The notes under the pieces are model-generated. The model was not told the origin of the DNA. It ran no database searches and saw nothing but the letters and a program-made list of their open reading frames with translations. Made by a program: the position numbers and the translations under genes. From Zeus faber (taxonomy: Eukaryota > Chordata > Actinopteri > Zeiformes > Zeidae): a DNA stretch of 64,000 bases. The stretch spans positions 30,690,677 to 30,754,676 of the forward strand of contig OY482848.1 of assembly GCA_960531495.1 (NCBI GenBank), given 5' to 3'. Below, in pieces: positions 43,601 through 47,008 of this stretch (position 1 is its first letter; every line of letters begins with the position of its first letter).

Positions 43601-46600
43601 AATGAGGTAGTAAATAAATGAGCAATAAAAAAATATAAATAAAATATTCTTCCTGTGTCATCTCTTTTTTTGTTATTAATTGTCATTCAATCTAAAAACT
43701 TTCTCTCCGCTCCTCTCCTGGACCAGAGCCAGCCTCTGGGCAACAAGGTGGAGATGGAGATCGCCAGCATGCTGGAGAAGAACACCACCCTGCTGAAGTT
43801 CGGCTACCACTTCACCCAGCAGGGCCCACGCCTGCGCGGCTCCAACGCCATGATGAACAACAACGACCTGGGTACATTTCAATGATACTACTGAGACCAG
43901 ATAGGAGGATGAATAGTAGGTCATATCCTGTATTTTTCAGATGTGGCAGTCGGAATTCAAACTCACAACCTTGTGAGGGTTGTGAGCCCTGTGACTCACC
44001 CTGGGGCACCCCAGGACACGGCAGCTTGTAAATTTACGTTTTGTTTGGCAGTCCGAGGCGGTACTCATGTCAGTGCTAAACTCATATATTTTTTATATAA
44101 AAAAAGCCCTCGTAATTAGCCGAGCTAAGGAAAGCAAAGATGTTATTGGCCAGGAGACCCCGGGCCAATCAAAACAAAGCTTGGCATCACCCTCTGCCTT
44201 CCTGGATCGCAACGTCATCGCTAATGAAAAGAGTGTGTGAGAGTGAGTGTGAGTGTGAGTGTGAGAGTGCAGAGTGCGTGATGGCCGCTTCATCCACTGA
44301 TTTGAGAAGTCTGGACTTATAAGCCACAGTAAGAAGATGAAGAAGAACCAATACTGCTGTATTATATTGCGATATTTTACAATTCAAGGCTGATGTAGGG
44401 AATCGGATCAGGGAGTAGCCAGATATTAAAGAAATGTGTTTGTTTGTTTTTTAGACATAGGAACATGTCCCTTAATAGATTACACGTCAATAATTATGTT
44501 CCATTTTGGTCTAAGTGTGTACTGTATGTGTATATGCACGTTTGTGTATGTTGTTTGACCATGTTGTGTGAACTGAGTGAATTTCACACACAATATCAAT
44601 ATATACATATCCATACATGACCATGTTTTTTATAAATGTATAAACTGCTCACAACTTAAACCCCCCTGTTGTATTTGAAATCCCATCTCCCAATCAGTTT
44701 AATCACATTGGACTATATAATCAGTCCCTCCAGGAACTGGAGGAGCTTGGGATCGCAATAATATACAGTATAAATAATCAAACTGGGGAAAGAAAGTGCG
44801 TCCAAACTTACCCAATCAATCCAATCCACAACTATCGTTTTGTTTCTGCAAATTATGTTACCTTAGCGACATTATCAAAACTTCCTGCCTGTCCACGAGC
44901 TAATGCTATCTGTGTGAACTGGCGACTACGATAGTAATGCAATAATTTTTTCTTCCAAAATAACATTGTGCAAAGCCATTTCCCTGTGTTTTGGGAAACT
45001 TTTTTGTACCCCCTGTAATACAGTCCTGCAACACAAATAAATATTGTCAACTGACTTGAAATTAGTGACTTATTTGCTGCAAAACATCAAAAAGTGCATT
45101 GCAACTTTTCAGTAAAGGGCAATTTCAGCAATAATCACAGAAAAAATTTTTGAGATCCCAGTGGGGCTGTATAGTTGTTAATATAAAGTAGAAAATCAGA
45201 TCAAAACGACATCAAATAATTAGAAATTTCACATCATCATGTGAGTATGTGCTTGTACTCCAGAGCGAGTGTGTGCATCCTAACACCAATTGTTTCCCCT
45301 GTGGTCTTGTAGCGCGGGTCATCAGGTCCGATTCAGACGGCTCCTTCACTCTCACGCTCTCCGTCCCAGAGCTGGAACGGGCCTTTGGGAAAAAGTTCAA
45401 GTCCAAGACAAAGTAATGCGCCCTGACACTCCATGGCGCACGGCGACCTTTGACCTCTTCTGCTCTGCTCACCAGCCGATGCTTCTCTTCGTGGCCACCG
45501 GGATGCTCAGCAACTTTGTGCTGTGTTCCAAATCGATCAAGCAGTCACTTAGTCGTTGAGTAACGAGAGTGGCAGCCATTTTGTAGGGTGTTCCAAATCT
45601 AAAAAAAACCTACCTACCTCATACCTACCTCATATTATAGTCCACTTCAGATTACCCAGCATGCACCTCAAAATGTAACAAACAAAGGATGCTCAACTAT
45701 CCAAAAACGGCAAAACAGTTTTACAAAGGAATAACTGATTTGTTATTTCGCTGACTTACGCCTATATTTCAGGGTTAGGGTTAGTGAACAAATGCATGAT
45801 TTGGAACAAAGTCAACAATTTGGAACACAGCATTTTTTTTGTCCAGTCCTCAGTGTCTTTGATTTCAACTCCCTGCAACTCCCTTTCTCGCCTACATATT
45901 GTAGTCGTGTCTTCGGTGTTTTTTCCTTCTAAGTGTCCACTCAACTTATGTTTCACCTGTATCTCTCTCGTGATTCTTTCTTGGCTTTTCTTGCAAGGTG
46001 GGATGGTGTACGGCAAGTCAGTTGCCGTTTGGTCCCTATTATGTCAATACTGCTATACGACTTAATGAGCTACTGTGCTCACACCTAGTGGCCGCACTGT
46101 GACATTGCAGTTCTACATTGACCTACATAGAGCAACTGATGACACCAGCTTCGTGATATGGGCCGACGATGTCTAAGAACCCCAGTTCTGTCAGAAAGAA
46201 GGGATCAATTATCAACATGGCGGCCATTCTTCACCGTCTTCCTCTGCCTCCTTCCCTGTGAAGACCGCTGGCAGCAGATCGCCGTCTGTCCATGCTACTT
46301 AATTTCTCATCTTTTCAAAGAATCTGTCGAGTCTATCAACTGAAAACTGTTTACGCGGCTCACCTCTTCTCTCCCCTCCCGTCCTCCTTCACCTTCCTCT
46401 TCTCGCCTCGCACCCCCCCCCACCCCTTTCAGACTTCAGTCTCACTCTCTTCAGAAGCCTGAAGTTCCTTCAAGAGCTGTGCTTGTCTGAGATCTTAACT
46501 TTTACAGCTATTTGGAGGGGAAGTGCTCTATCTGTTGGTTGGTTCCTATCCTGCTTTTTTTTAGAGATGAAAGTTTCTTCCTATAAGCTCTGTGGTCTCC

Positions 46601-47008
46601 ATGATTTATATTTTTAATGGAGATCAAACGAGTAGCTTGCTGTAGGTTTTTATTCCCTCCCTCCTTCGATGTTAGTCACTGTAATCAGTTCCCGGCTAAA
46701 AAGAACAAACAAATATTTTCTCGAGCTCAAAACGCTCTGTAGTGTTACATACTGTTTTGATCAAACCTCCCTCTCCAAAGCCCAAAAAGCTCTTTTACTC
46801 CTTCCGCTCAATCAGTAGCCAAGCACATAAAGGACAAACTTCTAAAGATAAGCCATGTACTGTATGTAATGGTCCAATTTTTAACCTGTAACTTATCTTC
46901 TCCGTCTTCCCTCCTTCTTCCTGTCTCTCTCTCTCATCTCCATTTGCAGTTAGAAAGAGAAGGCTTGAAGGAGGACCCATCTTGCCCAAGTGTCGGACAA
47001 ACGTGTAG
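34562..47008 (+). CDS. tmod1: tropomodulin-1, all coding exons, two alternative ends
   Basis: Tropomodulin caps the slow-growing (pointed) end of tropomyosin-coated actin filaments in sarcomeres, red-cell membrane skeleton and lens (family knowledge). Exons 34562-34684, 37226-37382, 37719-37835, 40896-40985, 41630-41760, 42422-42529, 43002-43145 and 43727-43871 join in frame. The canonical end 46950-47008 gives 357 residues, against 359 that I recall for human TMOD1. The N-terminal tropomyosin-binding helix ([20 protein letters not shown]) and the leucine-rich-repeat half (from [20 protein letters not shown] onward) are both complete. The phase-1 donor at 43871 can also join 45313-45416, giving a 372-residue form. 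TMOD1 is preferred over other paralogues from sequence and tdrd7 synteny. Confidence 0.95.
34693..34728. repeat. (CA)n microsatellite after a donor
   Basis: A short CA array beginning eight bases after the exon 1 donor. Confidence 0.9.
35189..35298. repeat. (GT)n microsatellite
   Basis: About 55 GT units in tmod1 intron 1. The rest of this intron (34729-37225) holds no further feature that I can name. Confidence 0.98.
37226..37382 (+). CDS. tmod1: tmod1 coding exon 2
   Basis: Acceptor tggtgcag, donor gtaact, phase 1 out. It encodes [20 protein letters not shown], then [14 protein letters not shown] and [11 protein letters not shown], covering the first actin-binding region. A (GT)n array follows the donor. 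Confidence 0.96.
37389..37491. repeat. (GT)n microsatellite after a donor
   Basis: About 48 GT units starting six bases after the exon 2 donor. Confidence 0.98.
37719..37835 (+). CDS. tmod1: tmod1 coding exon 3
   Basis: Acceptor gttttag, donor gtagga. It encodes [20 protein letters not shown] and [12 protein letters not shown], the junction between the N-terminal half and the LRR domain. Confidence 0.96.
38880..39210 (+). repeat. dispersed repeat, copy 1
   Basis: Shares about 310 bases of related text with 59165-59482. Common parts include gctgagaaaaatagtccaca, gtttctatgtag, acaagggatgtgaa and a closing gagcattccaca block. It lies in tmod1 intron 3. Class unknown. Confidence 0.6.
40012..40705 (+). 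other. unrecognised overlapping ORFs in tmod1 intron
   Basis: Two overlapping frames (40012-40419, 135 codons, and 40289-40705, 138 codons) show mixed composition and no motif that I can place. A repeat-derived relic is most likely. Splice context for tmod1 is absent because exons 3 and 4 join directly. Confidence 0.3.
40580..40665. repeat. (TTTA/TTTG)n tract
   Basis: Tetranucleotide-type run of tttatttatttg text. Confidence 0.8.
40817..40892. repeat. (TC)n microsatellite acting as polypyrimidine tract
   Basis: About 37 TC units ending in ctccag, the acceptor of tmod1 exon 4. Confidence 0.97.
40896..40985 (+). CDS. tmod1: tmod1 coding exon 4
   Basis: Acceptor ctctccag, donor gtaagt, phase 1 at both ends. 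It encodes [20 protein letters not shown] and then TIVNKQGLN. The polypyrimidine tract is a (TC)n microsatellite. Confidence 0.96.
41042..41095. repeat. (GATA)n microsatellite
   Basis: About 13 units in tmod1 intron 4. Confidence 0.95.
41630..41760 (+). CDS. tmod1: tmod1 coding exon 5
   Basis: Acceptor atattccag, donor gtaggg, phase 0 out. It encodes [20 protein letters not shown] and then VEVNLNNIR, the first leucine-rich repeat. Confidence 0.96.
42422..42529 (+). CDS. tmod1: tmod1 coding exon 6
   Basis: 36 codons, phase 0 at both ends, acceptor ccttccag, donor gtgagt. It encodes [20 protein letters not shown] and [12 protein letters not shown] (LRR). Confidence 0.96.
43002..43145 (+). CDS. 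tmod1: tmod1 coding exon 7
   Basis: 48 codons, phase 0 at both ends, acceptor ctctcag, donor gtatct. It encodes [20 protein letters not shown] and [12 protein letters not shown] (LRR). Confidence 0.96.
43727..43871 (+). CDS. tmod1: tmod1 coding exon 8
   Basis: Acceptor tggaccag, donor gtacat, phase 1 out. It encodes [20 protein letters not shown] and [20 protein letters not shown], the last part of the LRR domain. Both terminal exons below accept its phase. Confidence 0.96.
45313..45416 (+). CDS. tmod1: tmod1 alternative terminal exon (new tail)
   Basis: Acceptor gtcttgtag. The exon starts with the two bases that complete an Ala codon and runs 34 codons to TAA at 45414. The tail begins [20 protein letters not shown] and ends in a Lys-rich stretch (KKFKSKTK). 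It is phase-matched to the donor at 43871 and has strong coding character. I do not recognise this tail from mammalian tropomodulins. No AATAAA is obvious before the next exon. It could be an alternative last exon, a fish-specific isoform, or an unused coding relic. Confidence 0.75.
46950..47008 (+). CDS. tmod1: tmod1 canonical terminal exon
   Basis: Acceptor catttgcag. Two bases complete the Val codon, then [15 protein letters not shown] follows and a TAG stop at 47006-47008. It matches the basic C-terminal segment that I recall at the end of human TMOD1, which is needed for capping. Confidence 0.93.

What the first reader, a model, noticed from the sequence alone, without database searches (positions are those of the whole stretch)
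45313..47008. Second, phase-matched terminal exon in tmod1 with an unfamiliar tail
The donor at 43871 is phase 1. Both 45313-45416 and 46950-47008 start with two bases that complete its codon, and both end in a stop. The downstream exon gives the expected basic tail (RKRRL then PKCR). The upstream exon gives 34 codons with a serine/aspartate stretch, a short strand-like segment ([10 protein letters not shown]) and a Lys-rich end. In tropomodulins the extreme C-terminus contributes to pointed-end capping, so exchange could change capping strength or partners. I do not recognise this tail from mammals.
Basis: partly seen in the sequence, partly recalled or inferred. Interest (0 to 1): 0.78.

Follow-up and report, generated by a model that had tools for sequence, protein, structure and literature searches.

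The report
Alternative tail exon in tropomodulin 1
An actin-capping gene, apparently of a fish, seems to carry a second, real protein-coding exon that would swap its last 19 residues for a different 34-residue tail, probably changing how the protein grips the slow-growing end of actin filaments.

Summary
The gene is tmod1 (eight shared coding exons, 34562-43871; ordinary last exon 46950-47008). In the 3,078-nt last intron lies 45313-45416: phase-matched, open, with an acceptor of middling strength for this gene and a CTAAC branch-like site 30 nt upstream. It looks truly coding. Codon score is positive inside and negative on both sides (+0.29 bits/codon inside, -1.27 upstream). Its synonymous codons match this genome's genes, not its introns (P about 5e-5). 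Of 161 phase-open AGs elsewhere in that intron none reaches half its coding score. The tail was found at one place in its genome, not near the paralogs, and has no Pfam match above cut-off and no PDB match. It would replace every residue after 338, including the last 15, reported as needed for actin-binding site 2. Architecture is open: no AATAAA/ATTAAA precedes the ordinary last exon. It is either a terminal exon with a weak or shared poly(A) site, or a cassette exon with a weak donor at 45412, giving almost the same protein (...KSKTN). No transcript and no second fish could be examined, so expression and conservation are untested; public fish gene models may already list it.

The parts
34562..34684 (+). 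tmod1 first coding exon ([13 protein letters not shown]...), phase 0 out
   Evidence: Pfam Tropomodulin 6.6e-62 over residues 5-143 of the spliced protein
37226..37382 (+). tmod1 coding exon
37719..37835 (+). tmod1 coding exon
40896..40985 (+). tmod1 coding exon
41630..41760 (+). tmod1 coding exon (matches the start of the solved C-terminal LRR half)
42422..42529 (+). tmod1 coding exon
43002..43145 (+). tmod1 coding exon
43727..43871 (+). last shared exon, ends ...NNDL + G (phase 1); donor TGG|gtacat scores lowest of the eight donors (-1.76 on a simple matrix)
45280..45284 (+). CTAAC branch-point-like motif, branch A 30 nt before the exon
45313..45416 (+). alternative tail exon A: (A)[33 protein letters not shown] stop
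45410..45418 (+). donor-like AAA|GTAATG overlapping the TAA stop; used as a donor it makes exon A a 100-nt cassette (45313-45412)
46826..46831 (+). CATAAA, a weak poly(A)-like hexamer; no AATAAA or ATTAAA in 45417-46949
46950..47008 (+). ordinary last coding exon B: (V)[18 protein letters not shown] stop; also gives an immediate TAG if entered in phase 2
48789..48810 (+). first AATAAA signals downstream of both tails (48789 and 48805)

Best explanation
45313-45416 is a genuine alternative C-terminal coding exon of tmod1. The phase-1 donor at 43871 can be spliced either to 45313 (tail A, 372 aa) or to 46950 (tail B, 357 aa). Both forms share residues 1-338, that is the N-terminal tropomodulin domain and the LRR domain. 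They differ in everything after NNDL: tail B carries on the basic C-terminal segment of Tmod1, while tail A substitutes a Ser/Asp-Gly turn, a Thr/Leu-rich stretch, a predicted helix ([11 protein letters not shown]) and a Lys-rich end. Shown: gene model, phase, exon-level coding signal with sharp edges, one place in this genome. Inferred: that it is spliced, and that the swap alters the C-terminal actin-binding site. Given that it is real, I take it as more likely terminal (3'UTR running to a weak or the shared poly(A) site, about 0.6) than cassette (about 0.4); the protein differs between the two only in the last residue (K or N). Predicted effect: loss or change of actin-binding site 2 with the tropomyosin-dependent N-terminal cap intact, hence a cap of different strength or partner.
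For: Phase and stops are exact. In the exon's frame the codon score is negative in all four 30-nt steps upstream (45192-45311), positive in all four steps inside, and negative in the seven steps scored downstream (45417-45626); upstream open stretch -1.27 bits/codon with third-position GC 0.34, exon +0.29 with 0.76; the eight shared exons score 0.27 to 0.99 leave-one-out. With its amino acids fixed, codons drawn by intron frequencies reach its score in 1 of 20,000 draws with each of three training sets. GC at third positions 25 of 33 against 30 of 66 at the others (one-sided Fisher P 0.0036). In the intron only this frame combines an ordinary acceptor with a clearly positive coding score. Acceptor score 4.5, above 3 of the gene's 7 other internal acceptors. 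CTAAC 30 nt upstream. Weak donor at 43871, as is common before regulated splicing (recalled). One place found in the 803-Mb own genome. The last 15 residues, which tail A replaces, are reported as needed for the second actin site (PMC6190845, passages).
Against: No transcript data. No second species. No AATAAA or ATTAAA in 45417-46949. Ten other phase-open AGs of the intron, one of them (45370) inside the exon in the same frame, have higher acceptor scores. The tail has no Pfam match above cut-off and no PDB match and no counterpart found near the paralogs. The signal rests on 33 codons; against tmod1's own codons its score is on the low side for a true exon (11% of simulated true exons score as low). 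The certain 18-codon exon B scores poorly on the same test (-4.5 with tmod1 codons, +2.0 with leiomodin codons added), so the test is noisy on short exons.
Confidence: 0.78

Rival explanations
1. Cassette version (a sub-case of the best explanation, not exclusive of it): 45313-45412 is an internal exon whose donor is AAA|GTAATG. Spliced to 46950 in phase 2 it yields ...KSKTN and an immediate TAG inside the last exon, so the message should escape nonsense-mediated decay (rule recalled) and use the ordinary poly(A) site.
For: Stop codon overlaps a donor-like site; the frame shift into 46950 gives T-TAG; no AATAAA or ATTAAA in 45417-46949; donor score 0.46 is above that of the gene's own 43871 donor, -1.76.
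Against: The donor lacks G at -1 and at +5; 7 of the gene's 8 donors score higher.
Confidence: 0.31
2. Chance open frame behind a cryptic acceptor, with no function.
For: 33 or more open codons after an AG is common by itself: 878 of 3780 plus-strand AGs. Ten phase-open AGs of the intron have higher acceptor scores. No expression evidence.
Against: Codon signal and its edges, synonymous test, empirical rate of about 0.1 per such intron with real exons included.
Confidence: 0.1
3. Poison or regulatory exon (may overlap with the best explanation): inclusion mainly lowers tmod1 output, and the tail itself matters little.
For: A good donor lies at 45997 (AAG|GTGGGA, score 4.0); an exon 45313-45997 would place the stop about 580 nt before a junction, a decay trigger by the usual rule (recalled). 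No recognisable domain in the tail.
Against: Amino-acid-level coding signal is not expected of a pure poison exon; with the 45412 donor the stop falls in the last exon.
Confidence: 0.1
4. Relic: a once-used tail that is now silent.
For: Nothing here shows present use.
Against: Frame, acceptor and codon preference are intact.
Confidence: 0.07

Closest known systems
Tropomodulin-1 (Tmod1; PDB 8f8t, 8iah, 4pki, 1io0)
   Same: Residues 4-343 of the tail A protein align to the 8iah and 8f8t Tmod1 chains (best E 1e-178); tail B keeps the RKRR start
   Different: Tail A replaces everything after position 338
Tmod2/3-like paralog of the same genome (C3; name assigned by me)
   Same: Same phase-1 junction (CTGG|gtacgt) before a last exon that would read VRRRRVEGDV
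   Different: Last intron only about 560 nt, with no comparable exon among 24 AGs
Leiomodins (own genome C5, C6, C15; names assigned by me)
   Same: Tropomodulin-related proteins with a different, longer C-terminus
   Different: Here the difference would arise by exon choice in one gene, and the tail has no Pfam match
Alternative C-terminal exons in general
   Same: One phase, two C-termini
   Different: I met no C-terminal splice form of tmod1 in the ten paper searches named in Tried and rejected; fish gene models and transcript databases were not available

Membership tests
Tropomodulin 1 | Tropomodulin N-terminal domain | tested here: met
   PF03250, 6.6e-62, residues 5-143
Tropomodulin 1 | LRR domain like that of solved Tmod1 | tested here: met
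   phmmer 1e-178 to 8iah_Y, query 4-343; 4.3e-92 to 1io0_A, query 160-341
Tropomodulin 1 | Basic C-terminal segment (RKRR start) | tested here: not met
   Met by tail B, not met by tail A; the tail A form is a tmod1 product with a non-canonical end
Tropomodulin 1 | Pointed-end capping by the protein | not testable with these tools
   needs biochemistry
Alternative coding exon | Acceptor, branch-like site and phase compatible with the upstream donor | tested here: met
Alternative coding exon | Frame-specific coding signal bounded by the splice site | tested here: met
Alternative coding exon | Junction reads | not testable with these tools
   no RNA data
Alternative coding exon | Conservation in other fish | not testable with these tools
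   no other fish genome is held; one scan each of prokaryote and viral contigs, with six peptide patterns, found no relative
Alternative terminal (last) exon | Own poly(A) signal before the next exon | tested here: inconclusive
   No AATAAA/ATTAAA in 45417-46949; of the eleven hexamers searched only CATAAA (46826) and AAAAAG (46698, 46784) occur there
[quoted passage not shown]
   Tail A alone: 0 Pfam families at E up to 10, within the limits of HMMER's filters

The most novel reading that the evidence does not exclude
Fish tmod1 encodes two functionally distinct pointed-end caps by exon choice. The tail A form lacks the residues reported as needed for actin-binding site 2 and so would be a tropomyosin-dependent, weaker or 'leaky' cap, or a cap with a new partner or a regulated Ser/Asp switch, used in a particular tissue to set actin filament length.
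Probability: 0.3. Interest if true: 0.68.

Novelty: new variant of a known kind. Interest (0 to 1): 0.45.

Why it matters
As far as I recall and met in the searches, vertebrate tropomodulins are described as varying by gene (Tmod1-4), not by C-terminal splicing. The last 15 residues of Tmod1 are reported as needed for actin binding although residues A345-V359 do not seem to touch actin in the structure (PMC6190845, passages). A natural form in which exactly that part is exchanged would be a ready-made test of what it does, and could show how one gene serves tissues that need different filament lengths.

Tried and rejected
Transposon or repeat origin: the tail has one place in the own genome by protein search, which scores only the best candidates of a first look. 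A DNA search with 45200-45700 did not complete, so repeat origin of the flanks is untested; within 43872-47600 the only direct-repeat family of 16 nt or more is a 27-nt pair.

Same tail in paralogs: in 9.9 kb at C8, 9.9 kb at C3 and 6.6 kb at C21 downstream of the tropomodulin-type loci, the best tblastn match to the tail has E 0.50. I could not find the last exon of the C8 gene. The leiomodin-type loci were covered only by the genome-wide search.

Continuation of the frame through another exon after a 45412 donor: among phase-2 acceptors up to 50500 none opens a convincing frame; the best scores are 4.7 (8 codons, poor acceptor) and 3.7 (15 codons, acceptor 1.4).

Known domain or fold of the tail: phmmer against the PDB 0 hits at E up to 10. 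Pfam: 0 families for the tail alone; in the whole protein DUF4387 touches residues 337-356 at E 0.022, 15.8 bits against a cut-off of 27, taken as chance. Foldseek on the 33-residue model: 12 matches at E up to 10, best 3.9. An EF-hand-like reading of DSDGSF...PEL was considered by eye and dropped for lack of a Pfam match.

Literature: ten searches (lists capped at 12 to 25 rows, only listings and abstract starts seen) and passages of eight papers showed no C-terminal splice form of tmod1. The tail peptides occur in 0 held papers. One passage lists a TMOD3 exon pair in a table of platelet splice isoforms (PMC2654914), not followed. A listing (PMC4550387) names a 41-kDa erythrocyte Tmod1; I recall a shorter form with a different start, not a different tail.

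One search trained codon usage partly on wrong-strand frames; its synonymous test and its 0-of-600 resampling result are not used, one search replaces the former. Only the Fisher count, which needs no training, is kept. The splice-site matrices use recalled frequencies. One search had one exon start off by one, corrected. One stretch (L041) held no AG at all and appears unreadable; leaving it out raises the rate from 0.096 to about 0.11. L035 and L036 of that call overlap the window, and three of its six hits are the same places as three of the window's.

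Full report
Gene. The eight shared coding exons (34562 to 43871) splice to a frame that matches solved Tmod1 chains over residues 4-343 (E 1e-178) and Pfam Tropomodulin. The spliced products are 357 aa with the ordinary tail and 372 aa with the alternative tail. Neighbours in the window are a Tudor-domain exon upstream on the same strand and two Synaphin (complexin) exons downstream on the other strand. The window lies at C4:30690677-30754676 of a genome of 803,497,848 bases in 153 contigs. 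The genome has further tropomodulin-type loci on C3, C8 and C21 and loci with long leiomodin-like exons on C5, C6 and C15 (the names are my assignment).

Observation. Exon A's acceptor scores 4.5; the gene's seven other internal acceptors score -1.3 to 12.4, exon B 6.6. CTAAC lies with its branch A 30 nt upstream. Acceptor strength alone does not single it out: ten other phase-open AGs in the intron score higher, one of them (45370) inside the exon and in the same frame.

Is it more than chance? Length alone is not: 878 of 3780 phase-open plus-strand AGs are followed by 33 or more open codons. The codon content is. In the exon's frame the score is -51.9 bits over the 41 open codons that end at 45314 and +9.6 over the 33 exon codons, and it is negative in the seven 30-nt steps scored after the stop. 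The two other frames of the exon score about -1 per codon. Third positions are G or C in 25 of 33 codons, against 30 of 66 for the other positions. With amino acids held fixed, codons drawn by intron frequencies reach the observed score in 1 of 20,000 draws with each of three training sets (tmod1, tmod1 plus leiomodins, leiomodins). Codons drawn by gene frequencies score as low as the exon in 11%, 57% and 62% of draws. Of 1603 open 33-codon blocks elsewhere in the window (both strands), 25, 31 and 34 reach its synonymous score with the three sets. All of these lie before 25,320 or after 54,590, where other genes and a retrotransposon-like frame lie, except one with leiomodin training (minus strand, 29244); two minus-strand blocks (38206, 40782) reach its total but not its synonymous score with leiomodin training. 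Joint acceptor and codon score: 4 of 3780 and 2 of 3865 in the window, 6 of 8615 in other stretches, known exons among them. Limits: 33 codons, simple matrices, and exon B itself scores weakly.

Architecture. Between the stop of exon A and the ordinary last exon there is no AATAAA or ATTAAA; the first ones after exon B are at 48789 and 48805. One or two would be expected by base composition (my estimate), so the absence is mild evidence only. Either the exon is terminal and uses CATAAA at 46826, another weak signal, or the shared sites by running through 46950; or it is internal. AAA|GTAATG at 45412 is a weak donor, yet it scores above the gene's own 43871 donor (0.46 against -1.76). Joined in phase 2 to 46950 it reads ...KSKTN and then TAG. 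The protein is thus almost the same either way. A stronger donor at 45997 (4.0) would leave the stop about 580 nt before a junction and make the message a likely decay target (rule recalled); I rank this lower because the exon carries an amino-acid-level coding signal.

Function. Position 338 is the last shared residue. Tail B continues as in other Tmod1. Tail A replaces everything that follows. [quoted passage not shown] PMC4571291 (one passage) calls the C-terminal helix generally flexible and says it changes conformation when bound to actin. So the exchange falls on a part with a reported effect and an unexplained mechanism. The single-sequence model of the tail gives two 2-residue strands (4-5, 11-12) and a helix (17-27), mean pLDDT 79.5, pTM 0.36, and no fold match better than E 3.9; this is a weak guide. 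Net charge is similar (+4 against +5), and by eye Arg at tail positions 2 and 5 is kept. My inference: the form keeps tropomyosin-linked capping and has a changed second actin site.

What is known. Zebrafish is said to have three tropomodulin genes, tmod1, one tmod2/3 and tmod4 (PMC4257009 and PMC10605842, passages), which fits C4, C3 and C8 here if C21 is a leiomodin (my assignment). I met no C-terminal splice form of tmod1 in ten searches and passages of eight papers, but fish gene models and transcript archives were out of reach and may well already list this exon. The finding is therefore a probable new variant of a known kind, unproven at the RNA level.

Noticed in passing
window 7415-10363 (+), and a fragment near 57145-57645 (+): A 983-residue open frame that looks like a LINE-type endonuclease/reverse transcriptase, with a shorter related piece downstream. 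Named by eye only.
   Followed up: no
window 54565-54756 and 62765-63037 (-): Two exons of a complexin-type gene (Pfam Synaphin) downstream of tmod1 on the opposite strand.
   Followed up: partly
window 20581-20838 (+): Tudor-domain exon (Pfam); possibly tdrd7, the recalled neighbour of TMOD1 in mammals.
   Followed up: partly
window 43866-43877, and L033 (C3 paralog): The last donor CTGG|gtac is shared by tmod1 and its tmod2/3-like paralog, which suggests a retained weak site.
   Followed up: no
window 45508-45534 and 45573-45599: A 27-nt imperfect direct repeat (81%) at 65-nt spacing just after exon A.
   Followed up: no
window 45997: A good donor-like site (AAG|GTGGGA, 4.0) in the last intron that would make a long exon with the stop far upstream of a junction.
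   Followed up: no
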